Source: a virus | IMG/VR virus record: IMGVR_UViG_3300020162_002681 | Coordinates: 62,001-126,000 of that record | Direction: 5' to 3' (one strand) | Length of the DNA stretch: 64,000 nucleotides | Shown: positions 2,079-62,048 of the stretch, in pieces | Layout of the letters: every line of letters starts with the position of its first letter | How positions within the stretch are numbered: position 1 is the stretch's first letter | Made by a program: the position numbers and the translations under genes | The notes under the pieces: model-generated | Database searches by the model: none | Told to the model about the DNA's origin: nothing | What the model saw: only the letters and a program-made list of their open reading frames with translations

Positions 2079-2080
2079 AT

Positions 2081-2461
2081 ATGGCTTCCCCTAATTTTGC
2101 AACATTTCCTAGAACAGAAGCAGTAAGAATTTCTACTGCAAACGCTAATAGAGATGGTACAGGCACTGTAGCGGATTTATGGGTTGCACCTGCGGCTGGA
2201 AGTCGTATTGACAAGCTTTCCTTTATGGCTACAGGAACAACAAGTGCGGGAATGATTAGATTATATACGAAAAAGTCCTCTGTTTATAGATTTTACAAAG
2301 AATACCAAGTTACTGCTACTACACCATCAGATTCAGCGCTTGCTTTCAATATGCAATTAAATGGTTTAGCTATAATTCTTGGTAATGCGGTAACTTTGTG
2401 TGTTTCTACCAGTAAAGGAGAAACTTTTGATATAACCGCAGAAGGTGGGGATTTCACTTAG
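2081..2461 (+). CDS. small virion protein of fibre operon
   Basis: The 126-residue protein has no recognised family. It is all-beta in character, with alternating hydrophobic residues and no signal peptide or membrane segment. It starts 3 bp after the preceding fibre gene and its stop abuts the ATG of the next gene, so it is firmly inside the fibre operon. A structural or fibre-accessory role is inferred from context only. Confidence 0.55.
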   Translation: MASPNFATFPRTEAVRISTANANRDGTGTVADLWVAPAAGSRIDKLSFMATGTTSAGMIRLYTKKSSVYRFYKEYQVTATTPSDSALAFNMQLNGLAIILGNAVTLCVSTSKGETFDITAEGGDFT

Positions 2462-10567: not shown

Positions 10568-10575
10568 CCCAATTT

Positions 10576-10658
10576 GGAAGGTTGAACATAGGCACGTTAA
10601 GCTCTTTGCTAAAGAGTCGAGGGTAATACCTCTGTAGATTCGACTTCTACACCTTCCG
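10576..10658 (+). tRNA. tRNA-Ser (GCT)
   Basis: The acceptor GGAAGGT/ACCTTCC is perfect. The anticodon loop TTGCTAA gives GCT. A long variable arm (GAGG/CCTC) marks a class II tRNA. The T-arm is GTAGA-TTCGACT-TCTAC. Discriminator G. No encoded CCA. Confidence 0.88.
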
Positions 10659-10661
10659 TTT

Positions 10662-10742
10662 GGAAGAATGCGCTCATGGGGGCAAACGGTCTTGAAAACC
10701 GCGCTAGGGTCACACCTAACAGTTCGATTCTGTATTTTTCCT
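10662..10742 (+). tRNA. tRNA-Ser (TGA)
   Basis: The acceptor is GGAAGAA/TTTTTCC. The anticodon loop CTTGAAA gives TGA. The variable arm is TAGG/CCTA and the T-loop TTCGATT. The T-stem has four good pairs. The long variable arm supports serine. Confidence 0.8.
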
Positions 10743-10761
10743 TTGGCAATCGATTGCCAAA
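10742..10761. repeat. 20 bp perfect palindrome
   Basis: TTTGGCAATCGATTGCCAAA is fully self-complementary and abuts the 3' end of tRNA-Ser(TGA). It could be a processing hairpin or a dimeric protein site. There is no T-run, so it is not a standard terminator. Confidence 0.6.
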
Positions 10762-10766
10762 AACAA

Positions 10767-10879
10767 AACACCCTTCCGAGTGTCTCGGATTGCTTAGTGA
10801 AAGTGGCAGCTTCAACGCTGCGTCTAGCCGCATAAAGGCTAGGCTACCACAGGTGGAGACGGAAGCTAATATTGGTGTT
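10767..10879 (+). ncRNA. candidate structured non-coding RNA in tRNA array
   Basis: No gene is supported here, but the sequence folds well. The outer stem AACACC/GGTGTT (10767-10772 with 10874-10879) is stacked on CTTCCG/CGGAAG (10773-10778 with 10860-10865). They enclose a junction with hairpins GCAGC-TTCAAC-GCTGC, CTAGCC-GCATAAA-GGCTAG and CTACC-ACA-GGTGG. The overall shape is a multibranch, tRNA-sized RNA, but no tRNA cloverleaf with a T-loop fits. I do not recognise the family. The plus strand is inferred from the flanking tRNAs. Confidence 0.45.
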
Positions 10880-10893
10880 CATAACAATAAGAG

Positions 10894-10984
10894 TTGCATT
10901 ACGTGAGTATGCAAAGTTGGGGCTGGTAATACTACAGGCTGTCAGAAGGTTCCAAGAACGGTTGCAAAACAGTTGAGAGCTGAC
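10894..10984 (+). ncRNA. second structured segment upstream of tRNA-Gly
   Basis: The hairpin TTGCAT/ATGCAA (10894-10914) is followed by a GTCAG/CTGAC stem (10941-10945 with 10980-10984) enclosing GTTC-CAA-GAAC. It may be part of the same RNA as the preceding feature, or a leader of the tRNA-Gly transcript. Support is only from folding by eye. Confidence 0.25.
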
Positions 10985-10998
10985 CTCTTATTTAACTT

Positions 10999-11072
10999 GC
11001 GGAACTAGCTCAATTTGGTAGAGCAAGCCCCTTCCAAGGGAAAGGTTAAGAGTTCAAGTCTCTTGTTTCGCT
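10999..11072 (+). tRNA. tRNA-Gly (TCC)
   Basis: The acceptor is GCGGAAC/GTTTCGC, the D-arm GCTC...GAGC and the T-arm AAGAG-TTCAAGT-CTCTT. The loop CTTCCAA gives TCC. The anticodon stem has only three good pairs (CCC/GGG), with two mismatches above. The 3' 19 bases overlap the end of the convergent HNH gene. Confidence 0.8.
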
Positions 11073-11773
11073 TTTTTAGTAATTCCATATTCCTTGCATC
11101 TATTTCTTATAGTTATATCGCTTACGCCATATATTTTAGAGATTTTTATCATAGAATATTTATTTACAAGGTCTTGTAAGGTATTTCTATCTATGTGAAA
11201 TTTTATAGTTTGATTTTTATATCTATTAGAACATTTTACACATCTCTTAGACTGCCTTAATATATCTAATCCACAATCAACGCATTTTAAATTGGGCTTT
11301 ACTTTAATGTTTTTACCTGCATAATTATCTGTTTGGGAATGGCAATTTGGACAAAGTATTCTTAAATTATCGATTCTATTGTCGTTATTTATACCGTTTA
11401 TATGGTCAAGCTGTAAACTAAGCTTAGCTCCATTCCATTCCCCAAGATTATTGCAAATAGCGCAAGAATAGTTCAAAATACCTTCTTTTACTAGTCTAGC
11501 TTTTAGGTTGGAAGTGTTATTATACTTAGAATTTTCTACTAAGATTAAATCTAAATCTATTTTCGATTTAGGTTGGGATTTTATATATTTCGCCCTATTT
11601 ACATCCAAATTATTCAAACATAAACCATTTTCACCTATGAGTTTTTTAAGGCACTCATAATTTGTGCTGTGTACAGGAACACCGACGTTTGTTAAAACTT
11701 GTTTGAGTGTATCCGACTCATTCAATAGTTTTTGTAGGTCGATAGTACTTAAACTTTTTAATTTTTTACTCAT
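11054..11773 (-). CDS. HNH homing endonuclease
   Basis: The 239-residue protein has a zinc-bound HNH core. CAICNN is followed by LDHINGINNDNRIDNLRILC and PNCHSQT (residues ~100-152). A second Cys pair cluster follows (CVDCG...RCVKCS, ~162-178), then a helix-turn-helix (LVNKYSMIKISKIYGVSDIT) that probably gives sequence specificity. It sits between tRNA-Gly and tRNA-Gln on the opposite strand, and its last codons overlap the tRNA-Gly 3' end. The frame is intact. Confidence 0.88.
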   Translation of the reverse strand: MSKKLKSLSTIDLQKLLNESDTLKQVLTNVGVPVHSTNYECLKKLIGENGLCLNNLDVNRAKYIKSQPKSKIDLDLILVENSKYNNTSNLKARLVKEGILNYSCAICNNLGEWNGAKLSLQLDHINGINNDNRIDNLRILCPNCHSQTDNYAGKNIKVKPNLKCVDCGLDILRQSKRCVKCSNRYKNQTIKFHIDRNTLQDLVNKYSMIKISKIYGVSDITIRNRCKEYGITKKAKQET

Positions 11774-11780
11774 AATCCCA

Positions 11781-11788
11781 ATTATACA
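11781..11788 (-). promoter_or_regulatory. promoter -10 (TGTATAAT) of HNH gene
   Basis: The minus strand reads TGTATAAT 8 bp before the HNH ATG, so the transcript would be nearly leaderless. It is the same octamer as at 8825 and 12094. Confidence 0.4.
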
Positions 11789-11852
11789 CTACCTTAAAAC
11801 AGGTATTCCCTAAAACCAAGAGATGAGATATCGTAATTCTCTAACCGCTTAA

Positions 11853-11923
11853 TCCTTTGTAGTGAAATGGCATCACACGACACTTTGATTGTCGCATTCT
11901 ACGTTCGACCCGTAGCAAAGGAA
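11853..11923 (+). tRNA. tRNA-Gln (TTG)
   Basis: The acceptor TCCTTTG/CAAAGGA is perfect. The anticodon arm CGACA-CTTTGAT-TGTCG gives TTG. The T-loop is TTCGACC with stem ACG/CGT. Discriminator A. Confidence 0.85.
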
Positions 11924-11933
11924 TTGGGATGCT

Positions 11934-12008
11934 GAGATAGAACCCAAACGGCTAGGGACATGACTGTGAATCATGGTTTAGTGAGTTCGACCCTCACCTA
12001 TCTCCCCA
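11934..12008 (+). tRNA. tRNA-His (GTG), CCA encoded
   Basis: The acceptor is GAGATAG/CTATCTC. The anticodon arm CATGA-CTGTGAA-TCATG gives GTG. The T-arm is GTGAG-TTCGACC-CTCAC. Discriminator C73 is followed by an encoded CCA, the only one in this array. The base at -1 is T rather than the G expected for bacterial tRNA-His. Confidence 0.87.
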
Positions 12009-12011
12009 AAT

Positions 12012-12083
12012 GGCTCTCTAGCATAATGGTATTGCACTTGCTTTGTAAGCAAAAGATTGTCAGTTTGATTCTGACGGGAGCCT
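12012..12083 (+). tRNA. tRNA-Thr (TGT)
   Basis: The acceptor is GGCTCTC/GGGAGCC. The anticodon loop TTTGTAA gives TGT on stem TTGC/GCAA. The T-arm is GTCAG-TTTGATT-CTGAC. Discriminator T. It begins four bases after the CCA of tRNA-His. Confidence 0.85.
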
Positions 12084-14376: not shown

Positions 14377-14766
14377 CTAGAAATTTACAAAGTGCTGAAA
14401 ATTGCCACTGAAACCGCCGTATTGCCCTTGGAGAGCCGCCTGTTGACTACGCCAAGCACTCGCAGGAATTTTTTTACGTGCTACACCTGCTGCATCAATG
14501 AAGCTATTTTCACCTAATGGTCTTTGAGGGTTTCTAGGTGCTTGTTGCTTTGCCATGCCTCTACCCACGCTGGCGCTAGCAATTGCTTCCTGTCTGTTCA
14601 GGCTAGGAGGGGAGTTCTGCACCACTGCTGACCTCTGATTTCTCGTCAACGCTAGAGGTGAGGAATTAATAGGAGTCTCACCCCAAGTTGGAACTTCAGG
14701 TGCTTTTGGTTTGAAACTTTGACGAAGCTGATTTGCTTTTTGCCCGATAGTGGAGGTAGGTAGCAT
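14377..14766 (-). CDS. 129-residue virion candidate ending in FQHFVNF
   Basis: The protein is basic, Pro/Gln/Ser-rich and low-complexity, without a recognised domain. Its last seven residues, FQHFVNF, closely match FKHFKNF at the end of the protein at 47373-47957 and MQHFANF elsewhere. This suggests a shared targeting or cleavage tag. The gene stands alone between large tail genes, with a TATAAA box about 30 bp upstream. Its stop overlaps the region of the RHH remnant. Confidence 0.55.
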   Translation of the reverse strand: MLPTSTIGQKANQLRQSFKPKAPEVPTWGETPINSSPLALTRNQRSAVVQNSPPSLNRQEAIASASVGRGMAKQQAPRNPQRPLGENSFIDAAGVARKKIPASAWRSQQAALQGQYGGFSGNFQHFVNF

Positions 14767-21514: not shown

Positions 21515-22078
21515 TTAGTAACGAATACGGGCTTTAGGCATTCTAACACCTGTAGATACCATGTCAACAGGTTCTTCCATCATTCCACCCATTCCTTTGT
21601 ATGAGTCAGTTCTAAATCCTAAGTATCCTGTTGGACTTGCAGCTTCATCGGTTGTTTTGCGAATATCTGTGAAGCCTTTAGTGTCTGGGGTTTTCACGTA
21701 ATCTCTTTTTAGTGGGTCAGGTGCATAGAGGTCTTTATATTCGTACCCTTTAGGCTTACGCATTAGTTGTGGTAATCCAGCCTCTTTTCTTAGTCTGGTT
21801 CTATTGCCGCCTCGGTCGTTATACCACTCATCCTTTAAAAGAGTATTTCCACCATCTCTAGTATCGAAACTATAAGGCTTTAATGACTCTCTAGCTACTC
21901 TAAGTGTATTTGCAGGTTTAGTCTGGCTTCCAAACGGTTTTAGTTTCTCATTTAGAGTGTCTTCTACTCCCTTACCGTACTTTTTTGTATATATTTCGTC
22001 AGCTTTACCTAATTGAGCATTTCTTTTCAGTTGTTTGTTTTGCTGCTTGATTACACCAAAATCTGCGAAGTGTTGCAT
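21515..22078 (-). CDS. 187-residue virion candidate starting MQHFADF
   Basis: The protein is basic and Lys/Arg/Gly-rich, with no recognised fold. Its N-terminus MQHFADFG nearly equals the internal MQHFANFG of the protein at 61074-62048 and the MKHFAEF peptide at 6184. By analogy with T4 internal-protein leaders this could be a capsid-targeting sequence removed by the prohead protease. It belongs to a run of closely packed small genes between the tail hub and the fibres. Confidence 0.55.
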   Translation of the reverse strand: MQHFADFGVIKQQNKQLKRNAQLGKADEIYTKKYGKGVEDTLNEKLKPFGSQTKPANTLRVARESLKPYSFDTRDGGNTLLKDEWYNDRGGNRTRLRKEAGLPQLMRKPKGYEYKDLYAPDPLKRDYVKTPDTKGFTDIRKTTDEAASPTGYLGFRTDSYKGMGGMMEEPVDMVSTGVRMPKARIRY

Positions 22079-37295: not shown

Positions 37296-38112
37296 CTATG
37301 ATAGCAGAGATTGGAGAGCTTCTTGCCTAGCGGTATAAGCAAGTTCTGGTGTATCAAACGTACCAATATAGATTTTTTGTTTGTTTACGACTAATCGAGC
37401 TTCATACTTGTCGTATTTACCTTTTTTATACACACCAGACGGTAGCTTTCGGGATTTTTTGGGGCTGGTCAGTTGAGCCTTATCTAATTCTTCTTTTACA
37501 GAGCTATCTTTGTCCCAGTAAAATTTTTCAGCTAAGATTCTAACATAACAAGCTTCTTTCTCTGTTTCGTAAGACCCCAGATAGATTGATTTTTTTATTT
37601 ACCTTAATACTTGTTTCCCACCTTGCACCTTCGGATTTCCTATAGGCACTATCTCCCCTCTTTCTTCTCGATTCTATCATAAGCGTCTTATTTTCTTCTG
37701 AATGAGTTTTTCCGTAAAAGGGATTATTCTTACCTAATGTTTGCTGTTTCTTTTTTATTTTTCTGTGAGGCTCATCTTCAGATATTTTACCAAAAGCTCT
37801 AGTAGACCTAGTTTGGTTGTAGCAAAGTTTCCAATCTGTAATTGAATCTAGGTAAGTTTGTTCAATATCTAATAAATCCTCATTGCTCTTATTTTCACAA
37901 TTTTCTAAAACTTCTATATTAAAAATAGAATCCCCATGCAGATTGAAAACTCTTTGTAAATGCTTATTATTGTGTGTCTGCTTCCTTAATTTGTAAAAAT
38001 GCTCCCTAATCCTAATTCTAATGTTTTGGCTACTGCCAATGTAGAAGAATTTAGAGTCTGTATTGGTTATTTTGTAAATACCTTTAATATTAGGTATATT
38101 GTTTAAATCCAT
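37296..38112 (-). pseudogene. GIY-YIG endonuclease with two AP2 domains, split by a frameshift
   Basis: The intact frame (37540-38112, 190 residues) has GIY-YIG (GIYKITN ... FYIGSSQNIRIRIREH) and a NUMOD3-like NPFYGKTHSEE block, then enters an AP2 domain (ARWETSIKVNKK) and stops. Removing one A from the A7 run (37590-37596) restores IYLGSYETEKEACYV and continues into a second AP2 domain (SGVYKKGKYDKYEARLVVNK ... IYIGTFDTPELAY), ending at 37296. This homing enzyme next to the capsid gene has been inactivated, or the homopolymer was misread. Confidence 0.75.
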
Positions 38113-40449: not shown

Positions 40450-41331
40450 TTATAGTCCGAAATCCAGACCCATAGCAATCAAGTCACCTTTGGCGGCTTC
40501 TTCAAGGCTAGATGAGAAATTAGCAGTTGCAACTTCTTCAGCACTAACACTGAAATCGGTGAACTGAGTAACATTAGCAATATTACGGAGCAAGCTATAA
40601 GCGAACTCCGACATATTAAGTTGTTCTTGCAAGTCACGCGCACCGTTAGTTTGAGCGATACCACTAAACTGAGCTACTCGTTGGCGAGGGTCAGAGAAGT
40701 TACCGATAAGAGCTTCCTTCATTGCTGGGGTAATAACACCATCAACAACGTCTTGGCTAATACGTGCGTTCAAGTCGCTCAACGCTTGGGAAAGTTGTGC
40801 TTCAAAGTTAGCTTGTGCAAAGTTAGCTTCAAGAGCTTCTTTTTCTGCGCGTAGCTTTTGAATTTCACTAACTACAGTCTTATTAAAGTTAGCTTGGATT
40901 GCGGGGTTATAAGCAGCCGCATAATCTGCTCCTTCTTGTGCCATATCTGGTTCTACGCCTCCTTCAGCGTCATCCGTATCATATTGAGCTTCTAGAGCTT
41001 GTTTATCCTGTTCTAAGACTCCATCAGCAACTTCGATAATTTGTTCAATATCTTCATCGTTAGCGTCAGGGAAAGCTCCAATCATTGCTTCGAGAATATT
41101 GACATCATCAACAATGTTTTCACCGCTAATGTAGCCAGTTACATCTTCTTCACTCAGTCCAGTAGATTGAACGAGAGCTTGAATACCAGCATCAATGTCG
41201 CCTTCATATTGGGCTTCAATTAAGTCTAGAAGTAATTCGCCAAAAGCATTGGTTGGATTGAGTTCGGTCATTTCCTGACCTGCCCCTTCCATACCAGCGT
41301 CCTGAGCGCCTAAATCTTGTTCTTCATCCAT
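40450..41331 (-). CDS. scaffold-like protein
   Basis: The 293-residue, very acidic protein has a Glu/Asp-rich N-terminal half. A coiled coil lies at ~150-195 (VSEIQKLRAEKEALEANFAQ). Its position upstream of the capsid gene and near the protease is the classic scaffold slot. Four ANF tripeptides (147-149, 169-171, 174-176, 270-272) plus GNF (210-212) would let the prohead protease cut it to small peptides, as scaffold removal requires. The ANF code is inference. Confidence 0.72.
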   Translation of the reverse strand: MDEEQDLGAQDAGMEGAGQEMTELNPTNAFGELLLDLIEAQYEGDIDAGIQALVQSTGLSEEDVTGYISGENIVDDVNILEAMIGAFPDANDEDIEQIIEVADGVLEQDKQALEAQYDTDDAEGGVEPDMAQEGADYAAAYNPAIQANFNKTVVSEIQKLRAEKEALEANFAQANFEAQLSQALSDLNARISQDVVDGVITPAMKEALIGNFSDPRQRVAQFSGIAQTNGARDLQEQLNMSEFAYSLLRNIANVTQFTDFSVSAEEVATANFSSSLEEAAKGDLIAMGLDFGL

Positions 41332-41362
41332 TTTTATTATTTTCGTTTTTTAGGATTAAAAC

Positions 41363-41398
41363 AATAATGCCACACTAATTTCTCAGCATGGCATTATT
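41363..41398 (-). terminator. hairpin terminator between internal-protein and scaffold genes
   Basis: A perfect 10 bp stem AATAATGCCA/TGGCATTATT with a 16-base loop lies 24 bp beyond the stop of the gene at 41422. A T-rich tract follows on the minus strand (TTATTGTTTTAAT), and TTTTTT follows on the plus strand, so it may act in both directions. Confidence 0.6.
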
Positions 41399-41421
41399 TA
41401 TGGTTTTTTCCCGTAAGTGGA

Positions 41422-43074
41422 TTATTCTATAGGAATGTTAGGAATTTTACCCCTTTCTTGGGGGTTTGGGTTGGTTTTTGCCATACCTTTATTTTTACTT
41501 CTCCAGTCTTGCAGTTGCTTTTGATTGAGTCCGTAGCCAGCCGCCGAACCAACTCCACGACCCACAGCTCCCCCAGCAGCACCTAGTCCAAGCACTTTAC
41601 CAGCACGCCCAACCAAACCTGTACTTCTGCGTTGCTCTTCTGTCTCATTAATCCCAGCTCCCTCAAGAACCCCCAAACCAGCACCTACAGCAGTACCTAC
41701 ATTAGCAGGGTTAATTTGTGGAGAGAGATTCATAAAACGTTTTGCAGTTCCAGCAGCAGCCTTTTGAGCGCCTTGAACCAGACCCGTAGGAATCATGCCA
41801 AATGATGCAGACTTACGAACTGTCTTATTGTAACGAGCTTCATCTTCCTTTTTTCTTAGCCCATTAGCGGCAAGCAATCCACCACCAGCAAGTGCAGTAC
41901 CACCAACTCCGATAGCAGCAAGTCGAGCAGCTTTATCAGTGTCAAGAACCTTGGCAGCACCTTGTAATGCATCGTAAGTACCAGCAGCCGCCTTGTTAGC
42001 TCCTCCATTGAGTCTAGAGCCAATAATAGGAATACCACCTAAAAATTTATCTGTGGTGTTGATTTTGCCAGCAGCCTTACGAACTGCTTTAGCTGCGGGT
42101 TGTGTGATATACTTACCTGCCGAGGTCAACGCACTGTTAATTTGTGCACCAATTCCAAAATTCGCTTCTTGTTGGTGTTTTAGGAAGTTTGCAGATTTGC
42201 GGATTTCTTTATTAAAGTACTTACCAGTTGGCTTGCCAGATTCAATCATCGAGTTGATGTCCTTAACTCCCATGCTTGCTGGGATTTTAGGTTCTCTCAA
42301 CTTCTTTTTCTGCATCTTACCTTTAAGTGTTGTTTCAAGGGTAACAACTCCAGTATTGTCTTGAGGGATATAGGTACTACCTTTTTGGATTAGTCTTTGA
42401 ATTGTAGCTGGGTCTTGGAAATTAGCCGCTTTGCGAATTGATTTGCTCATATCTATTGTTTGTCCATTAAGTCCTTGGTTAGTTGCTCCTGTTGGCTTGC
42501 GTCGAAACACATTACCAAAGAATTGCTTAGTTGTTTCAATGTCTTGTTGTGCTTTACCAGCAGCCCTGTCTAGAAGTGAAGGTTGACTACCACTAGACTG
42601 ACGTTGTAAATCTTCATTCATTCTAGCTTCACGTTGCTCTAGATTAGGATTAACAATCTTTTGAACTTCCTGCTTAACATTCTGAATTTCGTCACTTACA
42701 GCTCTTCCAGTATCTTTGACTACTTTAACTGCTTTACGGATGCCTCTAGGGTTAGCTGCTTCATGTTCAGCCACAACAGCTTCTCTACGTTGTAACTCTC
42801 TTTCTGGAGCTTTAGATAAATTGTAGCGATTAGCCGCATATCCAGCACCAGCCCCCAGTCCAGCACCTACAGTCGTGCTTGTCAGTACTTTACCTAAACG
42901 ATTGCCAACATTAGTAGCTTTCTTTTCTGCATCTGACTCCAGAACTCCAGAGCCTTGTAGCAATCCAACTCCAGCACCAACACCAGCACCAATTTTCACT
43001 GCGTTAGGGAGGGCAGAAAGGAGGGATGGTTTGGCAAACTCAGCTTTTTTTTGTAGTAGTGATTTTTTATTCAT
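41422..43074 (-). CDS. glycine-zipper internal polyprotein candidate
   Basis: The 550-residue basic protein (ATG 43074, overlapping the upstream stop as TAATG) has two copies of a glycine-zipper module at residues ~26-84 and ~460-518 (GAGLGVLEGAGINETEEQRR, then GRAGKVLGLGAAGGAVG). A third hydrophobic Gly/Ala hairpin lies near 385-405. AEF (11-13), ANF (217-219, 295-297, 304-306) and ASF (423-425), often after RK(S/A), divide it into segments. A packaged, protease-processed internal protein acting on membranes at ejection is inferred. Confidence 0.6.
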   Translation of the reverse strand: MNKKSLLQKKAEFAKPSLLSALPNAVKIGAGVGAGVGLLQGSGVLESDAEKKATNVGNRLGKVLTSTTVGAGLGAGAGYAANRYNLSKAPERELQRREAVVAEHEAANPRGIRKAVKVVKDTGRAVSDEIQNVKQEVQKIVNPNLEQREARMNEDLQRQSSGSQPSLLDRAAGKAQQDIETTKQFFGNVFRRKPTGATNQGLNGQTIDMSKSIRKAANFQDPATIQRLIQKGSTYIPQDNTGVVTLETTLKGKMQKKKLREPKIPASMGVKDINSMIESGKPTGKYFNKEIRKSANFLKHQQEANFGIGAQINSALTSAGKYITQPAAKAVRKAAGKINTTDKFLGGIPIIGSRLNGGANKAAAGTYDALQGAAKVLDTDKAARLAAIGVGGTALAGGGLLAANGLRKKEDEARYNKTVRKSASFGMIPTGLVQGAQKAAAGTAKRFMNLSPQINPANVGTAVGAGLGVLEGAGINETEEQRRSTGLVGRAGKVLGLGAAGGAVGRGVGSAAGYGLNQKQLQDWRSKNKGMAKTNPNPQERGKIPNIPIE

Positions 43075-43523
43075 TAGTTGTTCCAGTGATGTGCTACAGT
43101 ATTTCCGAGTAGACCTGTTACAGCACCTAATCCAGTATAGCTTGCTTGTTGACCTAAGCCTTTTAGACCAGCCCAACGTTGCAGTTTAGCGGATTCATAG
43201 TCAGCTTTAGATTGTGCTTTTTCGATTGCCGAAGCACGTTGCTTAGGGTCTTCAAGTTGTTGTGCAGCCTCCAGTTGAGCAGTTAAGGCTTGGTTGTGAC
43301 GCTCAGTGGGGTCAGCACTACGTCTCAGAGCTTTCGCTTTGGTTTGAGCAGCAGCAGCCCGACCTACTTCAGAGCCAGCAAGACCTCCTAAAGTAGTACC
43401 AAGATAATCACCAACACCTTCACTTACTAAGGCTGAAGGGTCGAAGAAGTTTGCAACCGCTTTATCGTATGCACGTTTGAACTGCGAGTAAGTTGAATTA
43501 TGTTTGCGAAAGAATTTAGCCAT
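43074..43523 (-). CDS. small glycine-rich internal protein candidate
   Basis: The 149-residue basic protein has ANFFDP at 24-29, matching KTANFFDPF in the upstream 442-residue protein. Two Gly-rich hydrophobic segments follow (VGDYLGTTLGGLAGSEVG and GLGAVTGLLGNTVAHHW) with a charged helix between. If cut after ANF, a 26-residue basic leader (MAKFFRKH...) would be lost, as in capsid-targeting sequences. It is coupled to the next gene by a one-base overlap. Confidence 0.58.
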   Translation of the reverse strand: MAKFFRKHNSTYSQFKRAYDKAVANFFDPSALVSEGVGDYLGTTLGGLAGSEVGRAAAAQTKAKALRRSADPTERHNQALTAQLEAAQQLEDPKQRASAIEKAQSKADYESAKLQRWAGLKGLGQQASYTGLGAVTGLLGNTVAHHWNN

Positions 43524-43531
43524 ATATTTTC

Positions 43532-44860
43532 CTATTGTAATGCCTCCCAGTTAGCACGTTTTAATCCAGTCCTAAGTACTGACCTAACATCTCCATTGAG
43601 AACTGAATCAATAATTCTATTCTTGGAGTCATCATCGATAAACCTATTCTGAGCTTTGTTTAGCAGTCCTCGGCGCAGTTGCTTATCCTTAATACCATCA
43701 AGAGCAGCTAACTTCTGAGCTTCAAACACTTCACTCTGTTCATCTGCGGCTTTCTTTTTGTTGTAAATACCATAAGCTGCACTACCGATAGCTAGGCTAG
43801 GGGTAATGAAAGGGTCGAAGAAGTTGGCAGTCTTACTTGTACCTCTAGAGTATTTAGCAGTACCTTTAGGTTTAGCTTGTTGTTGTGCAGGAGTTAGTCT
43901 ATCAAGGGGATTGTCTGTAACACTAGCTAACAAAGGATTACCAGTAATATTAGCAGCCTCACGAATCAGATTATCTGCGTGGTACTGAGGACTGTCGAAA
44001 TAATTAGCCGCAAAGTCTTGGGCATTCTTATCTTTGAGGCTATTTACCTTGTAAGCATCCAACGCTCTTTGCTTATTGAGCTTAGATAACAAACCGTACC
44101 CAGCTACTAAGGTTCCCCCAACAGCAGCTAAAGGCAGAGCTTTTTCTTTTTTAACGAAGAAAGGATTGCGAACACCAATTTTAGGGAATGCAAAATTCGC
44201 TGGAGCCACTAAAGGCGCAGCACTGAAGAAATTGTAAGGTACTTTAGGCTGAGTAGATTGTTGTTGTGCTTGTCTTTGTTCCAATAGCAGATTCCTCTTT
44301 GCAATAATTTCAGCCACCTTATCTCGATGACCTTGTGCCTGTGCTTGCTTTTCTTGTTCGACTTCTTTGTTTTTGTTATTTTGGTATATGGCTGTACCTG
44401 CGGCGATAGGGGCAAGGGTCAGTCCTCCTAAAGTTCCGTAGATGGCATTCTCACCAAAGCCTCTATCAATCAACTTATTGGCGACATGATTGACGACAGG
44501 AGTGACCAGAGGAATTCCACCACCACCCGAAAATTTGTCCCGCAGTCTTTGAGTTTCTGCATCGGCAAGCGCAGCTCTCTTAGCAGCTACTCTTTGACCT
44601 TGAGCACTACCTATCTCTGCTTGTGTGGGAGGGACTACAGGAGGCGCAGGAGGATTTAATTCTTGCAACCTCTTGTTATATACATCTTTACCCTCGGCTT
44701 GCAATCTTTTTTGTGCGAGAAACTTCTCAGCCTCAGTCATTGCAGAAGGTACTGGGTTTGCAGTAGCTTGCAACCTTCTCTTCTGCCTCATCCCAGCATT
44801 ATAAATGAGAGCAGACTTCCCGCCTCTAGGATTTTGTCTCACAGCAAATTCGCTTAGCAT
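43532..44860 (-). CDS. multi-membrane-segment internal polyprotein candidate
   Basis: The 442-residue protein has three hydrophobic segments, at ~137-160 (IYGTLGGLTLAPIAAGTAIY), 241-261 (ALPLAAVGGTLVAGYGLL) and 351-367 (FITPSLAIGSAAYGIY). They are separated by ANF sites at 221-223 and 345-347. Each predicted fragment would therefore carry one membrane-type helix. Basic, Gln-rich linkers join them. Its start overlaps the protease stop by 7 bp, so it is co-translated with the protease. Confidence 0.6.
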   Translation of the reverse strand: MLSEFAVRQNPRGGKSALIYNAGMRQKRRLQATANPVPSAMTEAEKFLAQKRLQAEGKDVYNKRLQELNPPAPPVVPPTQAEIGSAQGQRVAAKRAALADAETQRLRDKFSGGGGIPLVTPVVNHVANKLIDRGFGENAIYGTLGGLTLAPIAAGTAIYQNNKNKEVEQEKQAQAQGHRDKVAEIIAKRNLLLEQRQAQQQSTQPKVPYNFFSAAPLVAPANFAFPKIGVRNPFFVKKEKALPLAAVGGTLVAGYGLLSKLNKQRALDAYKVNSLKDKNAQDFAANYFDSPQYHADNLIREAANITGNPLLASVTDNPLDRLTPAQQQAKPKGTAKYSRGTSKTANFFDPFITPSLAIGSAAYGIYNKKKAADEQSEVFEAQKLAALDGIKDKQLRRGLLNKAQNRFIDDDSKNRIIDSVLNGDVRSVLRTGLKRANWEALQ

Positions 44861-45876
44861 TTAGCTGCACTTCCTCTTACATACTTTTTGACAGTACCTT
44901 TCGATAGGTTAAACAGAGCCAACTTATTAGTCCCCCGCTTGTATGTGGTTTGTTGTTGTAACTGAGGGATAGTCATCCCACTCTCAGTCCCTCCTTGCAA
45001 CTGTGCTTGGGTCTGTGCCGCTTGGTCTTGAGGAGTCATTACCCCAGCCTGTGCTTGCTGATTCATTTGTTGCATCAACTGAGTCAAACCGAGTAGTTCG
45101 ATAATCTTGACGCTGAATCCATTCAATTGTGAGTAAATCAACTGCAATAGAACTTCGGGGCTGTCAATGTTAATCGCATCATTGTCGTAAGCGTTCTTGA
45201 GTAGGAGCCAAAGCTTTTGGCAGACATCATTGTACTCTTCTTGCAAGTCATCGATTTGTTGGTCACTAGCATCAAGCTCGTCCCAAGTTACAGCATTCGA
45301 GGAGTCTGGAATACCTGTAAAGTTAGCAGTCATTGCTTTGCTTACTTTCTTGTGGAAAAGCCCCATGTTAGGGATTGCTGGAATAGGTACTAGAGACAGC
45401 TCCATAATACGATGTTCATTTGGGTCAAGGTTTAATCCCATGCTGACGCTCTTAACACCACTACGCAATGCTTCGATTCCTTTGGCTGCTGCAACTTTAA
45501 CACCAGACAAGAACATTCCAAGCTTACCAACTAGATGCTGAGAATTTTGGTTAGGTAAATCTTCTTCTGTGATAACTTTGGTGTAAGCGCGTCCACTAAT
45601 GCTTCCGATAGTATTTGGAATATCTTTCTTGTGGTCTGCACAAACGGGAACGACAGTACCGCTATCAATAGCTCGATTAGTATGCTCAACGATTGTATTT
45701 AAACGTTCGGCACTAAAATCGTGTTCAATATCTGTAGAGTCGGTGAACTTACCCTCAGTGGCAACGAGTGCGGTATATTCACTTTTAATTGGAGTGCCAG
45801 ATACCAACACCTGCCCCAACTCAAAGTTGGCTCTTGATGCTGGGGCTTTAAAATAGGCGATGTTGGTTTTCTTCAT
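44854..45876 (-). CDS. prohead serine protease
   Basis: The 340-residue protein has the herpesvirus/HK97-type prohead protease signature. His82 lies in CADHKKD, Ser144 in KSVSMGL, and MELSLVPIPAIPNMG (158-172) is the classic strand after the active site. ANF sites at 16-18 and 184-186 bracket exactly the catalytic core (~168 residues), suggesting self-cleavage at both ends. The Gln-rich C-terminal 150 residues may act as a scaffold segment. It is followed by internal-protein, scaffold and capsid genes. Confidence 0.85.
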   Translation of the reverse strand: MKKTNIAYFKAPASRANFELGQVLVSGTPIKSEYTALVATEGKFTDSTDIEHDFSAERLNTIVEHTNRAIDSGTVVPVCADHKKDIPNTIGSISGRAYTKVITEEDLPNQNSQHLVGKLGMFLSGVKVAAAKGIEALRSGVKSVSMGLNLDPNEHRIMELSLVPIPAIPNMGLFHKKVSKAMTANFTGIPDSSNAVTWDELDASDQQIDDLQEEYNDVCQKLWLLLKNAYDNDAINIDSPEVLLQLIYSQLNGFSVKIIELLGLTQLMQQMNQQAQAGVMTPQDQAAQTQAQLQGGTESGMTIPQLQQQTTYKRGTNKLALFNLSKGTVKKYVRGSAAKC

Positions 45877-55663: not shown

Positions 55664-57508
55664 CTATGAAAATATCTGGTTCCCAATACTTCGGTGAAAG
55701 TAGTTGAATGATTGAGAGTGAACCACATCTTCAAGACCACCTAAGCGCCCAAACCTCATAGCTGGTGGTTGGTAAACTGCATCAGTATAGCGCCCCTTAC
55801 CTACTGTCAGACGTACAGAGTCAATACGCCCAAGCATACTTATTTCTGCTGATGCAATAGCCAAGTTAGTAGCAGGAGAATCAGTAGCAAGCCCAGACTT
55901 CTCCGTAAGCAACTGACCATCACAATGTACCTTGATGCTCGTCCCAACTCGCGTGACAGAAAAGAATATGTAGCGACTGTTTTGGTATCTAAAAAGGCGA
56001 TTGGCGTTATCAAATGTGTAGGTGTTAGCACCGATGGTTACAATAAGCGTTAGATTCTGAGTGCTGGTGGTTAGTTGACCTGTGTAGCTAATGCTGAAGT
56101 TGGTGGAGCTGAAATAGTCATGGGTAAGTGTTGTTACCGATTCATAAAAAGCTGTGTCTTGATATTGTAAATAGAACTCGTAAGTAAAGTCTCCAGTTAC
56201 ATTGATGGTGGAAGCGGGAGCGATGGTGATGGTGTCAATTACATTATCAAACTCGGCAATTTGATTAGGAATACCAAAGGTGATGATGTCTGTATCTTGT
56301 TGGGTCACTCCTAGTATTGTTACTGGAACTGACAGACTACTTTTATCCTCGTACCAAAGTTTATCTCGCCATTCCTGAGCCTCAAAGTCGAGCAAGAGTT
56401 TGACATATTTGAAATAATCATCATAAAGTTTAGGAGCTGCTAGGAGTTGAGTCTGGTTGTCGTCGATGTTATAGCGCCAAGCAGGTATGCCCCCCTGACC
56501 TAGAGCAGCTATGTTAAGTGCAGTGGCGGTGACGTATGTAGTTATTACTCCAGCTACGTTTTGGACAGATATTGTGATGATATCTGTTTTCCCAGCGCCA
56601 GACAACCGAATAGCTTTACCGTCTTCATATTTGACGTTAGTAAGCCCACCAATCAAGATTTGTCCAGTGTCTTGTCTTATCTCAATGAGCATCACGGCTG
56701 CTTGATTGGTACTGGGAGATAACTGCGGTAACAAAATGCACTGAGCTTGAGTAGCTACAGGTAATCCAGTGACTATCCAATAATCTGAAGTAGCATAAGG
56801 CAGATTAACAGTAGCGGCGTTACCCACCACTGTAGAAATATTAGTAAAAGAATTATAAAAATAATTACCATTGGCGTTGAGGTTCCCACCTAGTTGTGGT
56901 GATGTGTCACGGACAATGTGCAGGTCTTGATTGCTCCAAACAGTCCCGCTAGCATCAAGCGAGAGTATCTGGTGTCTATGTGGGTCGCCTTCGGTTCCTG
57001 CTGTCGGTACTAGTTCTACGTCATCGAGTTGGTTGACAAGATTAAGTCGAGTTCGGGGTCGCCATCGCGCAGTAGGTAAGTCCCAATAGAGTGTCTGATT
57101 GTTAGTAAGACCTGCTAGATTTACGTCTGTAAGCTGAGATAGAGCGTAAGCTGGGCTTGCATTAACATACGCTTCTTTGAGGGGGTCATAGCGCAGGTAC
57201 TGACCATCTACAGGTGACACTATCTCAAGGTCACTCAGTCGGTTGAGGTTGCCAATCTGCGAAGCTGCTGTAAACTCGTTACCATCCTTAACAAAGAAAT
57301 CGCCATCACGCGCATTGGTTATGTTTACATCTTGAAGCTCAGTAAACTTCTGTACGCCCTTGCCAATCTCGAATACTTTGCCAGTGAAGTCCTTAGTGTA
57401 TAGGACTGCTTGCTCATCCTTAAGTGCTAAGACAAGTTCACCAACAGCAATTTCATAGGGTGCTGGAAGTGAATCGTTGTTAAGGGTGTGCTTAAGGATT
57501 GTTGACAC
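55664..57508 (-). CDS. tail fibre protein with LamG C-terminus
   Basis: The 614-residue protein has an N-terminal attachment region shared with the 327-residue neighbour. Four L(T/S)DV-type shaft repeats follow (RLSDLEIVSPVDGQYLRYD, QLTDVNLAGLTNNQTLYWD). A beta module is shared with the 537-residue fibre (LSGAGKTDIITI), and a LamG domain lies at ~419-603 ending RLTVGKGRYTDAVYQPP. The start is GTG at 57508, overlapping the upstream gene by 17 bp. Confidence 0.75.
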   Translation of the reverse strand: MSTILKHTLNNDSLPAPYEIAVGELVLALKDEQAVLYTKDFTGKVFEIGKGVQKFTELQDVNITNARDGDFFVKDGNEFTAASQIGNLNRLSDLEIVSPVDGQYLRYDPLKEAYVNASPAYALSQLTDVNLAGLTNNQTLYWDLPTARWRPRTRLNLVNQLDDVELVPTAGTEGDPHRHQILSLDASGTVWSNQDLHIVRDTSPQLGGNLNANGNYFYNSFTNISTVVGNAATVNLPYATSDYWIVTGLPVATQAQCILLPQLSPSTNQAAVMLIEIRQDTGQILIGGLTNVKYEDGKAIRLSGAGKTDIITISVQNVAGVITTYVTATALNIAALGQGGIPAWRYNIDDNQTQLLAAPKLYDDYFKYVKLLLDFEAQEWRDKLWYEDKSSLSVPVTILGVTQQDTDIITFGIPNQIAEFDNVIDTITIAPASTINVTGDFTYEFYLQYQDTAFYESVTTLTHDYFSSTNFSISYTGQLTTSTQNLTLIVTIGANTYTFDNANRLFRYQNSRYIFFSVTRVGTSIKVHCDGQLLTEKSGLATDSPATNLAIASAEISMLGRIDSVRLTVGKGRYTDAVYQPPAMRFGRLGGLEDVVHSQSFNYFHRSIGNQIFS

Positions 57509-57884
57509 AAGCTTGTGGTACTAATTGTACTTGTAAGCGTTCGAGATACTCTAGGCAGGTAAGGTCGTGTTCAATTGGTGTAAGTATGCGGATGATGCCA
57601 TAGAGGTCATCTATATCAGCTAAACGATTCAACTCATACTTCTTCCAGCTGTTTGCAAGTTTGTATAGTAAGTCAAAGTCATTCTGATACAAGAACTCGC
57701 CAGTTAGATACAAAGCATTAGACAGAAAATAAAGCTGACGTTGAGGTGTGGTTAGTTCGAGCGCCACTACTAGGTCGCGCCAATGCATCATGAACATCCT
57801 CACCTTAGCCATAGGGAAGGATAGGCAAGCTTTATACACAATTTGGTCAGTGATAAGTTCGGTGTTACTAGAAGCTGATACCAT
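57492..57884 (-). CDS. small helical protein after large terminase
   Basis: From ATG 57884 (MVSASSNTELI) it is 130 residues and mostly helical (FLSNALYLTGEFLYQNDFDL). It overlaps the TerL stop by 17 bp. Earlier in-frame ATGs at 57932 and 57941 are also possible. No family was recognised. The location suggests a packaging or fibre-assembly accessory. Confidence 0.5.
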   Translation of the reverse strand: MVSASSNTELITDQIVYKACLSFPMAKVRMFMMHWRDLVVALELTTPQRQLYFLSNALYLTGEFLYQNDFDLLYKLANSWKKYELNRLADIDDLYGIIRILTPIEHDLTCLEYLERLQVQLVPQACVNNP

Positions 57885-59559
57885 TGATGTCGTCGCAGTT
57901 GGGGAAGGTGTCGGTGAATATGAGGAGGTCATTTGCTTCATTATACTCTGAGCTGTACTTACGAGCAAACGCATCAGCCGCCCAATATTCGTCTTCAGTA
58001 AGGAGGTTATTCTTGTCATCGCCAAATATCATTATAGTGTTGTTGCTTGTTTTTTGGCTGAGGTAGCCTATAGCATACGCTGTGCAATCTACCCACTCGT
58101 TAGTTGAAAACAGAGGAAATCCAACCAGCTCGTTGATAGCGTGGTCAGGGTCGTAAGTTTCATCTAAGGTGTAGTCCGTCGAGTGAGGTTTGTAAAAATA
58201 TAGTTGCCCATTCTTGATGAAGGGTACAGCCGCACCAAATCGCTTTTCTTTGTCAGCTTGTGCCTTACCCCCCCATTCGCTAGGTCTGAAAGGGACAATG
58301 TTGGGATACTCACTGGCAAGCAATCGCATCACTGCTTCACCATTAGCTTTTGCCTCAACACCAATTTCAGCTTCAGGATACTTCTTGGCTAACTTTTTGA
58401 TAGCAGTCATTTGCCCCACAATATCCAGCTTAGCTCGAATACCGTCAATCACATAATAGCTGTCTTCTTTTCTGCCCACCACAGCACCGAGGTTCCAGCT
58501 CGTAGAAGCGGTTGATGCCGAAAAGGTTAAGTCCCACATAATAATCATCGAGTCCATCTTAGTCGGCTTCTGAGACACAATGCGAATATCTTTCTCGTCG
58601 AGCGTGATGCCCTTACCACCACCTGAAGGGTCTTGCTGGAATAAGGTCTTGCGTCTAATTGGGTTGATTGTGTTGAGATAACTGAGAGGTAGGCGTATTT
58701 TGTCCATAAGCTCACCTTCAGTCTTACGTGGGTCGTTCCACTTAGCTCCAAGAGGGGAAAAGTATGTCTTACGAGCAGCAAACTCAGCAGGGATACAAAG
58801 CTCGAAGAAGCCGTCTTCACCTCTGTATTTCTCGAATAAGTGAGCAATCAAGTCATCATCACCAAGACGCTGACAAATAGCTATCTTGATGTCTTCATTA
58901 ACATCATTGGTACGCCCGAATAACTGGTCAGTCACCCATGAGTTTCTGTCTCTTCGGATACTCTCATTTTTGTACATTGTCTCATCAATAATATCGTCGA
59001 TGAGGAAGACTGTTGCTCCATTACCAATAATCCCAGTCTCAGGTGAGGATATGTTAATTGCACCATATGCAGTGTTTGTTACTTCTTTTTTAGTTGATTG
59101 GTCATCAGATAACTTAAAGGAGTATTGAGGACTATTTGGATTACAGTATCTATCCTTGTACTTAGGGTTGTTGATAATATTTCTAGTCCCAAGTAAGTTT
59201 TTGGTACATAGGTCTAGTTTGTGGGACGACAGGAAGAAACGCTCTTCGGGATGACTAATCCATCTATATGCAGGGGCTGAAACCGAGGCTATTGTTGACT
59301 TTGAGCTGCGGGGTGATACAGTAATTGCAAGCTTTCTTATCTGTCTATTTAGTGCTGCCTCGATATGTTCAGCAATACAATCAATGTGCCAATTAGATGT
59401 TAAGTTTGTACCTTGATGAAATCCCCATGACCAAGGAAAGAAATGTCGTAGCTTCTTACTCGCTTTTTCTGCCAACACATCATCGAGCGCATCAGTCATC
59501 TGCCGAAGTTCAGCTTCGCTCATGTCATTAGATTGTTTTTGTGTGGTTCTTGCTGCCAT
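57868..59559 (-). CDS. terminase large subunit
   Basis: The 563-residue protein has the packaging ATPase and nuclease domains. The Walker A-like loop is VSPRSSKST (~81-89), Walker B is VFLIDDIID (~190) and a coupling motif is ICQRLGDDDL. The RNase H-like nuclease has acidic residues in IIMWDLTF (~350), IGVEAKANGE (~405) and EWVDCTAYAIG (~505). It translocates and cuts concatemeric DNA with TerS and portal. It is transcribed away from TerS from a shared AT-rich region. Confidence 0.95.
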   Translation of the reverse strand: MAARTTQKQSNDMSEAELRQMTDALDDVLAEKASKKLRHFFPWSWGFHQGTNLTSNWHIDCIAEHIEAALNRQIRKLAITVSPRSSKSTIASVSAPAYRWISHPEERFFLSSHKLDLCTKNLLGTRNIINNPKYKDRYCNPNSPQYSFKLSDDQSTKKEVTNTAYGAINISSPETGIIGNGATVFLIDDIIDETMYKNESIRRDRNSWVTDQLFGRTNDVNEDIKIAICQRLGDDDLIAHLFEKYRGEDGFFELCIPAEFAARKTYFSPLGAKWNDPRKTEGELMDKIRLPLSYLNTINPIRRKTLFQQDPSGGGKGITLDEKDIRIVSQKPTKMDSMIIMWDLTFSASTASTSWNLGAVVGRKEDSYYVIDGIRAKLDIVGQMTAIKKLAKKYPEAEIGVEAKANGEAVMRLLASEYPNIVPFRPSEWGGKAQADKEKRFGAAVPFIKNGQLYFYKPHSTDYTLDETYDPDHAINELVGFPLFSTNEWVDCTAYAIGYLSQKTSNNTIMIFGDDKNNLLTEDEYWAADAFARKYSSEYNEANDLLIFTDTFPNCDDINGISF

Positions 59560-61077: not shown

Positions 61078-62048
61078 GCTAAGTTGTCCATGTCTTGATA
61101 TGCTTTACGTCTCTTGTACATGGTGTTGCTAACCCTTGCGGCGTTCTCACCAGCAAGACCTAAACTTCCGCCGACAACTCCACCAGCAGCAGTGTTACCA
61201 AGAACTTTGCCAAGCCGACCTAATCCTGTAGTGTTAGCTTTTTCTTCTTCTGTCTCACCAATGCCAGCTCCTCTAGCCAGCCCAGCAGCAGCCCCAAGCC
61301 CTGCGCCAATCTGTACACCTCTAGTTGCACCAAATGCTTGAGCCGTATCCTTAAGTGCGCCTCCAGCAGCTTTAGCGTTGTTTAAGTAAGGCTGAGCTTT
61401 GTTTAGCATTGAAGGTAATGGGTTTGTAAAACCGAAGTTAGCGAAGTGTTGCATGTTTTTGTGTTGTGTGAAATTGATTCTACTATTGTAGCCTGTCATA
61501 AATGGCTTGCCTAATCTCTTAGCCGCATATAGGTTCTTTACTTCAGCTTCGTCATACTTATCTTTAATATTCTCAATTGCTGCATTATCGATAAGCCTAG
61601 CTTCGCGACGCTTTGGGTTGGGGTGTACTATATTTCCTTCGTGTATATCGACATGACCAAGATTTTGCTCACGTAGACGATTTTGGATACGACCAACTTG
61701 GCTCCCCAGTTTATACTGCTCCTTTGGTGCTATACCTTTTAATTTGTTAGGTAGAGGTTGACCAGCGTAATCTTGCGTGTAGGAGGTCATATTGCCACGT
61801 TCACGGTAGTTTTGCACTGGAGGCACTAGTCCTGTCGTTGTAGCTGCTTTACCTGCATTTGTATATTCTTTTCTACTGGCTTTTATGGCTGCTGCTCTGA
61901 CTTGAGGTGACTCAGGGTAGTAAGTACCGTCAGGGAGAATGTTGTCGATGCGTACCTTGTTTGTGGCAGGGAAATGTAGTACACGCTTATCTGGTGTGAG
62001 AAGAAGTGCTTTGGCGTTACGGATACGAGCGAAGGATGAGATGTTCAT
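61074..62048 (-). CDS. internal virion protein candidate with kinase-like loop and glycine zipper
   Basis: In the 324-residue basic protein, residues 131-154 (GHVDIHEGNIV ... ARLID) resemble the catalytic loop and metal-binding Asp of kinase/APH folds. MQHFANFG at 199-206 matches the tag found in other proteins. Residues ~246-303 are a glycine-zipper module (GAGLGAAAGLARGAGIGETE) nearly identical in pattern to the two in the protein at 41422-43074. If cut at ANF it would release a kinase-like part and a zipper part. Confidence 0.6.
   Translation of the reverse strand: MNISSFARIRNAKALLLTPDKRVLHFPATNKVRIDNILPDGTYYPESPQVRAAAIKASRKEYTNAGKAATTTGLVPPVQNYRERGNMTSYTQDYAGQPLPNKLKGIAPKEQYKLGSQVGRIQNRLREQNLGHVDIHEGNIVHPNPKRREARLIDNAAIENIKDKYDEAEVKNLYAAKRLGKPFMTGYNSRINFTQHKNMQHFANFGFTNPLPSMLNKAQPYLNNAKAAGGALKDTAQAFGATRGVQIGAGLGAAAGLARGAGIGETEEEKANTTGLGRLGKVLGNTAAGGVVGGSLGLAGENAARVSNTMYKRRKAYQDMDNLA

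What the first reader, a model, noticed from the sequence alone, without database searches (positions are those of the whole stretch)
40450..45876. A recurrent Ala-Asn-Phe code that could be a new prohead protease cleavage motif
Within six kilobases, the protease, three internal-protein candidates and the scaffold carry repeated ANF or close variants (AEF, ASF). Examples are KTANFFDP, VANFFDP, RKAANFQ, RKSANFL, QEANFGI, RKSASFG, APANFAF, RANFELG and TANFTGI, with four ANF in the 293-residue scaffold. The sites fall between domains: between membrane segments and at basic leaders. Known prohead proteases such as T4 gp21 use short motifs of comparable size, and I know of no ANF rule. The proposal is that cleavage after Phe matures the head and cuts polyproteins into packaged peptides.
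Basis: partly seen in the sequence, partly recalled or inferred. Interest (0 to 1): 0.85.

Follow-up and report, generated by a model that had tools for sequence, protein, structure and literature searches.

The report
A-x-F cut sites in phage heads
In a virus of the cyanobacterium Pseudanabaena, a three-residue signal (alanine, any residue, phenylalanine) marks where the virus's head-building protease most likely cuts its scaffold, itself and a set of mix-and-match internal proteins, a cutting rule unlike the glutamate-based rules described for T4 and giant phages.

Summary
In the window's head cluster (protease to scaffold, 1,774 aa) ANF occurs 12 times; its own composition predicts about 0.4, the other orders of the same letters occur 0-2 times, and it is the most enriched tripeptide. 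The window belongs to a 146 kb relative of Pseudanabaena siphophages PA-SR01 and Pam2. Across 11 related genomes the rule is A-x-F: A and F are kept while x varies (N, D, E, S, Q, V). Sites flank the catalytic domain of the protease, whose predicted fold matches prohead proteases, and cut the scaffold at positions still kept at 43% identity. They also delimit interchangeable, mostly glycine-zipper cassettes gained or lost precisely between A-x-F sites. In several late proteins the leader changes while A-x-F stays against the same mature start. Best reading: a prohead protease with A-x-F| specificity, cutting probably after Phe. No virion mass spectrometry was found, so cleavage itself is inferred.

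The parts
44854..45876 (-). Prohead protease gene (340 aa), catalytic domain about residues 19-183, conserved H82 and S143/S145
   Evidence: phrog_976 head maturation protease, all 11 homologues match, best E 2.5e-5; AF2 domain model hits prohead/capsid maturation proteases in BFVD, E down to 6.5e-7
45823..45831 (-). A-x-F site: ANF 16-18, N-terminal propeptide MKKTNIAYFKAPASRANF|ELG
   Evidence: kept in all 11 homologues; an ANF near the N terminus with unlike surroundings in L137/L138
45319..45327 (-). A-x-F site: ANF 184-186, end of catalytic domain / C-terminal propeptide
   Evidence: kept in all 11 homologues, as ASF in L137, absent in L138
43532..44860 (-). Internal polyprotein 1 (442 aa): three A/S-x-F units
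44846..44854 (-). N-terminal SEF 3-5 (homologues MSLKAEF, MLKKSANF, MLDNAEF)
   Evidence: F 11/11, P3 A or S
44192..44200 (-). A-x-F site: ANF 221-223
43820..43828 (-). A-x-F site: ANF 345-347; a 119-121 aa cassette is inserted at this boundary in L003/L008
43074..43523 (-). Internal protein 2 (149 aa), basic 26-aa leader then glycine-rich segments
43446..43454 (-). A-x-F site: ANF 24-26 (A 8/8, F 8/8, x = N/E/Q in homologues)
41422..43074 (-). Internal polyprotein 3 (550 aa from the corrected start): glycine-zipper and QDPAT cassettes
43036..43044 (-). A-x-F site: AEF, leader MNKKSLLQKKAEF|
42418..42426 (-). A-x-F site: ANF before QDPAT cassette (A 11/11, F 11/11)
42184..42192 (-). A-x-F site: RKSANF (x = N/E/V/S in homologues, A and F 11/11)
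42157..42165 (-). A-x-F site: QEANF, second of a double site
41800..41808 (-). A-x-F site: RKSASF before the C-terminal glycine-zipper cassette
40450..41331 (-). Scaffold protein candidate (293 aa)
   Evidence: acidic, between protease and MCP, homologues at 82-89% and 43%
40885..40893 (-). A-x-F site: ANF 147-149; A and F invariant (AYF, AQF in distant relatives)
40819..40827 (-). A-x-F site: ANF 169-171 (double site)
   Evidence: x = N or Q
40804..40812 (-). A-x-F site: ANF 174-176 (double site)
   Evidence: x = N or Q; ASF/ANF near here in L137/L138
40516..40524 (-). A-x-F site: ANF 270-272, frees the C-terminal 21 aa
   Evidence: A, F and the following S invariant down to 43% identity
38269..39504 (-). 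Major capsid protein (411 aa), no ANF
   Evidence: phrog_29 E 4e-20; gpE family by published HHpred (PMC10286775)
38311..38319 (-). Possible A-x-F site: ADF 13 aa before the MCP C terminus
   Evidence: A and F kept in a variable tail in SR01/Pam2; ADF in L138, EDF in L137
47373..47957 (-). Late protein with leader MTRQADF|MFEGLQ and C-terminal KHFKNF
   Evidence: leader length varies, A-x-F junction kept in 7 genomes; C-terminal HF[KT][ND]F kept
22058..22078 (-). MQHFADF N-terminal tag/leader of a 187-aa late protein
   Evidence: homologues MQHFANF|GYVK, MQHFTHFRSFEADF|GYVK
61434..61448 (-). Internal HFANF at a domain junction of a 324-aa late protein
   Evidence: the module downstream differs between genomes
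14380..14394 (-). C-terminal HFVNF; HFANF in SR01/Pam2/G003; in G002 the frame continues into a glycine-zipper module

Best explanation
The window encodes an assemblin-fold prohead protease whose recognition sequence is A-x-F (P3-P2-P1, cut probably after Phe). During prohead maturation it would release its own catalytic domain, chop the scaffold at three to four places, remove short N-terminal leaders, and cut polyproteins into packaged cassettes, many of them glycine-zipper hairpins. A second, clade-specific tag (HFxxF at the N terminus, sometimes internal or C-terminal) would recruit late proteins to the prohead core, as the T4 capsid-targeting sequence does, and usually overlaps the cut site (M-x-H-F-A-x-F|). 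Shown here: the sites, their enrichment, conservation, boundaries and strand bias, and the protease fold match. Inferred: cleavage, the exact bond, packaging and any membrane role.
For: Enrichment against permuted tripeptides and shuffles in three genomes; ANF ranks first or second among tripeptides in the head clusters of this clade and of two distant genomes. Protease identity: phrog_976 in 11/11 homologues and fold matches to capsid maturation/prohead proteases, with HCMV assemblin the best PDB hit though weak. Sites bracket the catalytic domain. At aligned sites in internal proteins A and F are kept while x varies and flanks are about half identical. Scaffold A147/F149 and A270/F272 are invariant at 43% identity. 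Cassettes are added, lost or moved exactly between A-x-F sites. Leaders change but A-x-F abuts the same mature start: four leaders before IRLSDKN; MQHFANF vs MQHFAHFNSQNANF before ALGDTELGNLNR; MQHFADF vs MQHFTHFRSFEADF before GYVKxANKQLKR. A different upstream tag (SYMxxT) meets the same A-x-F in distant genomes. N-terminal A[NDESQ]F: 10/74, 15/75 and 13/79 late-strand ORFs vs 2/137, 1/94 and 2/108 others, Fisher p 6e-4, 2e-5, 3e-4. Stop codons sit exactly after HFANF where another genome fuses a further module.
Against: No mass spectrometry or N-terminal sequencing of virions was found. The C-terminal site of the protease is missing in L138 and the A-x-F excess there is marginal (p 0.055). 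C-terminal HFKNF/HFVNF tags have no A and nothing after them to release, so part of the motif serves something else. A few leaders read VNF or TNF. MCP and portal lack obvious N-terminal sites. A-x-Y is also enriched in this cluster. Many genomes compared are close relatives, so per-genome counts are not independent.
Confidence: 0.8

Rival explanations
1. A-x-F is a short docking motif: proteins carrying it bind a common head component (scaffold, portal or MCP) and are packaged, without being cut there.
For: HFxxF occurs at N termini, inside and at C termini, and the C-terminal copies (HFKNF, HFVNF, HFANF) cannot release anything. Repeated motifs would give multivalent binding.
Against: It does not explain sites bracketing the protease catalytic domain, proteins starting MANF or MLSEF, or leaders of changing length whose last three residues are A-x-F before a fixed mature start. 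The upstream tag is replaced in distant genomes while A-x-F stays.
Confidence: 0.12
2. Both: HFxxF is a capsid-targeting tag and A-x-F the processing site, usually overlapping in the leader as in the T4 CTS. This is part of the best explanation and is listed to score the two-signal version.
For: When the tag lacks the Ala (HFTHF, HFVSF), an A-x-F usually follows a few residues later at the junction. HFxxF is almost confined to the late strand.
Against: No targeting test; the FANF pattern is nearly absent from the two distant genomes.
Confidence: 0.55
3. A-x-F marks domain boundaries only because recombination uses a short shared DNA stretch there, with no protein-level function.
For: Modules are swapped exactly at these points.
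Against: Codons vary, A and F are conserved but the middle residue is not, and sites in protease and scaffold are kept without any swap.
Confidence: 0.03
4. The enrichment is a by-product of amino-acid composition or repeats in Ala/Gly-rich internal proteins.
For: A-x-Y is also enriched; cassettes are partly paralogous.
Against: Within-protein shuffles and permuted tripeptides do not reproduce it, and it recurs in the scaffold and protease, which are not made of cassettes.
Confidence: 0.03

Closest known systems
Salmonella phage SPN3US gp245 (giant phages), cuts C-terminal to A-X-E (PMC10052503)
   Same: Three-residue rule with fixed P3 Ala and free P2; short and long N-terminal propeptides, a C-terminal propeptide on the protease, several packaged internal proteins.
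   Different: P1 is Glu there and Phe here; SPN3US is a giant myovirus with propeptides on MCP and portal; A-x-F-delimited cassette polyproteins are not described in the passages read.
T4 gp21, cuts after L/I-X-E; capsid-targeting sequence on internal proteins (PMC9026906)
   Same: Scaffold chopped into pieces, protease likely self-processed, 10-19 residue N-terminal propeptides that target internal proteins and are then removed.
   Different: Different P3 and P1; MCP is cut in T4 but has no N-terminal A-x-F here; host and tail type differ.
Phage Mu I protein / Mu-like prophage I (PF10123)
   Same: Protease joined to or beside a scaffold; published HHpred of PA-SR01 ORF24 gives E 4.5e-18 (PMC10286775).
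   Different: My direct HMM and hhalign tests do not reach significance; here the scaffold is a separate gene with internal-protein genes in between.
Herpesvirus assemblin (HCMV protease)
   Same: Best PDB match of the catalytic-domain model.
   Different: Weak match (E 0.03, TM 0.41); assemblin sites are of another type (own knowledge).

Membership tests
Assemblin-fold prohead (head maturation) protease | Sequence profile match to a head maturation protease family | tested here: met
   phrog_976 in 11/11 homologues, best E 2.5e-5; window protein 1.7e-4
Assemblin-fold prohead (head maturation) protease | Fold of the catalytic domain | tested here: met
   BFVD: 16 hits at E<=1e-3 including named capsid maturation, prohead protease and scaffold-peptidase entries; model of medium confidence, pLDDT 63.6
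Assemblin-fold prohead (head maturation) protease | Conserved His and Ser nucleophile | tested here: inconclusive
   H82, S143 and S145 invariant to 47% identity; sub-threshold hhalign places SVSMGLNL on Mu I YLSAVF
Assemblin-fold prohead (head maturation) protease | Gene lies upstream of scaffold and major capsid protein | tested here: met
   Gene order protease, internal proteins, scaffold, about 303-aa protein, MCP in window, SR01 and Pam2
Assemblin-fold prohead (head maturation) protease | Cleaves head proteins and itself | not testable with these tools
   needs virion proteomics or purified enzyme
Mu I protein family PF10123 | Match to the family model | tested here: not met
   No PF10123 hit in a direct Pfam scan of 11 members; hhalign to six Mu I proteins E 0.18. 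A published HHpred search did find it (PMC10286775). Not filed as a member here
T4-like / giant-phage Glu-specific proteases | P1 Glu (L/I-x-E or A-x-E) | tested here: not met
   Putative sites have Phe at the fixed third position
T4-type capsid-targeting sequence | Short N-terminal tag shared by otherwise unrelated late proteins | tested here: met
   M-x-HFxxF on unrelated late-strand proteins in three genomes
T4-type capsid-targeting sequence | Tag directs packaging and is removed | not testable with these tools
   needs tagged reporter packaging and virion proteomics

The most novel reading that the evidence does not exclude
These siphophages run a modular virion-cargo system: a portable tag (HFxxF here, SYMxxT in a sister lineage) sends proteins into the prohead and an A-x-F| site then frees them, so that glycine-zipper cassettes, an SNF2-type helicase and other modules can be swapped between genes and packaged by short peptide signals alone.
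Probability: 0.45. Interest if true: 0.85.

Novelty: new variant of a known kind. Interest (0 to 1): 0.72.

Why it matters
The described short-motif prohead proteases read here (T4 gp21, giant-phage proteases) cut after Glu. A Phe-specific A-x-F rule widens what this fold can recognise. It would let cleaved proteins be predicted from sequence alone in this lineage, whose head proteins are nearly all annotated as hypothetical, and it makes a long-tailed siphophage with many packaged, processed internal proteins directly testable in two cultured phages (PA-SR01, Pam2). If HFxxF is a targeting tag, it gives a short handle for loading cargo into phage heads.

Tried and rejected
AF2 on the full protease with a shallow alignment was useless (pLDDT 32) and was not searched. 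hhalign and HMMER against Mu I proteins gave no significant match. Pfam and NCBIfam gave nothing credible for the protease, and Pfam nothing for the internal proteins. phmmer of protease and MCP against PDB sequences: no hit. A genome-collection scan for protease relatives found none. TerL searches mostly gave close or roughly 25% identical relatives. Chance composition and recombination-linker explanations rejected. An MCP N-terminal site was considered (IENF/IEAF) and rejected because it lacks P3 Ala. No paper on an A-x-F or ANF prohead site was found in a few full-text searches; this is not an exhaustive literature check.
Full report
What the window is. The window is positions 62001-126000 of a 146,232-base virus record. 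Its protease and MCP are 91-92% and 78% identical to those of Pseudanabaena phages PA-SR01 and Pam2 and match no other phage record at E 1e-5. Both isolates are long-tailed siphophages with heads of about 91-100 nm; in the passages searched their papers report no mass spectrometry of the virion and no scaffold. The PA-SR01 authors found the protease homologous to Mu-like prophage I protein (PF10123, HHpred E 4.5e-18) and the MCP to the gpE family.

Checking the observation. All quoted peptides are there. In the five genes from protease to scaffold ANF occurs 12 times, against 0.4 expected by composition, and the other arrangements of the same letters 0-2 times; PA-SR01 and Pam2 give 10 each. 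A[NDESQ]F occurs 15-17 times per cluster, while the same with L, Y or I at the last place occurs 3-6 times. One correction: the 584-aa ORF really starts at 43074 with MNKKSLLQKKAEF.

The rule is A-x-F. In up to 11 genomes I aligned the three kinds of internal protein between protease and scaffold. At the best-resolved sites A and F are unchanged in all sequences while the middle residue runs through N, D, E, S, Q and V, with flanks only 0.48-0.70 identical. The N-terminal site of the first gene reads SEF in some genomes and AEF or ANF in others, so Ser may be allowed at P3. In the scaffold the close pair of sites swaps N and Q between its two members.

Where the sites sit. In the protease they lie at 16-18 and 184-186, on both sides of the conserved catalytic domain, which is what autoprocessing at both ends would need. 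The catalytic domain (19-186), modelled with an alignment that includes two distant relatives, reached pLDDT 63.6; its viral matches include named capsid maturation protease, prohead protease and scaffold-peptidase entries among the 16 hits at E<=1e-3, and its best PDB match is the cytomegalovirus assemblin, weakly (E 0.03). In the scaffold, sites divide off the C-terminal 21 residues and the middle of the chain.

Distant relatives. A scaffold search brought in two genomes at 41-42% scaffold identity. Both keep A-x-F at the scaffold sites (AYF, ASF, ANF; AQF, ANF, ASF), where A147, F149, A270 and F272 are invariant. They carry A-x-F or S-x-F after new, unrelated leaders on the protease and most internal proteins, and ANF is the second most enriched tripeptide of each cluster. 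They use another upstream tag, SYMxxT before A[ND]F, in several proteins, where the window's clade has RKS or HF. Different neighbours with the same A-x-F is what one expects if A-x-F is what an enzyme reads. L138 lacks the C-terminal site of the protease.

Cassettes. Cutting the internal proteins at A-x-F gives about 18 families of modules. A 119-121 aa module is present in L003 and L008 between two A-x-F sites and absent at the single site in the others; a 122 aa module in L004/L005 and an 80 aa module in Pam2 behave likewise; the 78-aa QDPAT module sits in two different genes behind two different leaders; one glycine-zipper hairpin family occurs at first, middle and last position. PA-SR01 has as two genes (403 and 202 aa) what L006 and L011 have as one 696-aa polyprotein with the same sites.

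Leaders and the HFxxF tag. Outside the head cluster, unrelated late proteins begin M-x-H-F-A-x-F. The DNA pattern for HFAxF is almost confined to the late strand (forward/reverse 0/8, 0/4, 2/7, 8/0 and 8/2 in five genomes) and its codons vary. Leaders can be compared between genomes: MQHFANF, MQHFTHFATTTANF, MQHFASFQSPLASF and MQHFVSFHLSQANF all precede IRLSDKN; MQHFANF and MQHFAHFNSQNANF precede ALGDTELGNLNR; MQHFADF and MQHFTHFRSFEADF precede GYVKxANKQLKR; MTRQADF and MTSKQTQQAEF precede MFEGLQALQH. When the tag itself lacks Ala, an A-x-F usually follows at the junction. This separates a tag (HFxxF) from a cut site (A-x-F|), much as T4 separates targeting residues 4 and 7 from processing residues 8 and 10 of its CTS (PMC9026906). 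Exceptions are MRHFVNF|G and MKHFTNF|S.

Which bond. In PA-SR01, Pam2 and G003 a protein ends exactly ...HFANF-stop, while in G002 the frame continues HFANF|GIGGAAKIG into a glycine-zipper module. Mature starts are constant right after F. Both point to cutting after Phe. But the conserved C-terminal KHFKNF of the 194-aa protein and HFVNF of the 129-aa protein lack Ala, so a terminal HFxxF probably works as a tag by itself, and the stop-codon argument is weaker than it first looks.

How it most likely works. Inferred: scaffold, protease and tagged internal proteins co-assemble in the prohead; the protease frees itself by cutting at its two A-x-F sites; it then chops scaffold and polyproteins and removes leaders; scaffold pieces leave and cassettes stay or are ejected. 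The glycine-zipper hairpins could act at the host membranes, but nothing here tests that. A tagged SNF2-type helicase would fit an ejected DNA-acting protein; where read, it lies on the strand opposite the structural genes, which is a caution.

Status. Known kind (prohead maturation protease with a short tripeptide rule), new variant (Phe where T4 and SPN3US have Glu), with an unusually modular substrate set. Cleavage itself is not shown.

Noticed in passing
L014 25081-26877 (-); L006 4314-5729 (-); L011 14273-15685 (-): SNF2/DEAD-type helicase carries HFA[ND]F: at its N terminus (MKHFADF|ADERQPITLQ) in L006/L011, internally (NMEHFANF|TDETQPITLQ) in PA-SR01, behind an N-terminal domain that in G003 precedes a glycine-zipper module instead. 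It lies on the strand opposite the structural genes.
   Followed up: partly
window 14377-14766 (-), PA-SR01 record 55862-56269, L017 48276-48671, L091: Small protein beside the tail-fibre genes ends in HF[AV]NF; in G002 the same frame runs on into a glycine-zipper module.
   Followed up: partly
L022 7790-8206 (-), L016 3596-4000 (+), L018 48812-49459 (+): A tagged small protein gene lies among early genes but on the late strand in PA-SR01 and Pam2 (and on the late strand in the window's genome); its leader differs in each while A-x-F|A is kept.
   Followed up: partly
window 37540-38112 (-): GIY-YIG-like ORF (GIYKITN...FYIGSS) directly downstream of the MCP, not annotated there in PA-SR01 or Pam2; similar ORFs of other lengths lie near the same place in L002, L003 and L007. 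Possible homing endonuclease.
   Followed up: no
window 55664-57508 (-), Pam2 record 2064-3905 and 57601-58398: The Pam2 record names two proteins after botulinum neurotoxins; the window orthologue of the first (gp3) is a 614-aa late protein with no Pfam hit. The names look like spurious annotation.
   Followed up: no
window 10575-12083 (+): Four tRNA genes (Ser, Gly, Gln, Thr), a set different from that of Pam2 (Arg, Lys, Asn, Gly) and PA-SR01 (Met, Asp, Gly).
   Followed up: no
head cluster 40450-45876 (-): A-x-Y is also enriched (15 vs 5.1 expected) and is unexplained.
   Followed up: no
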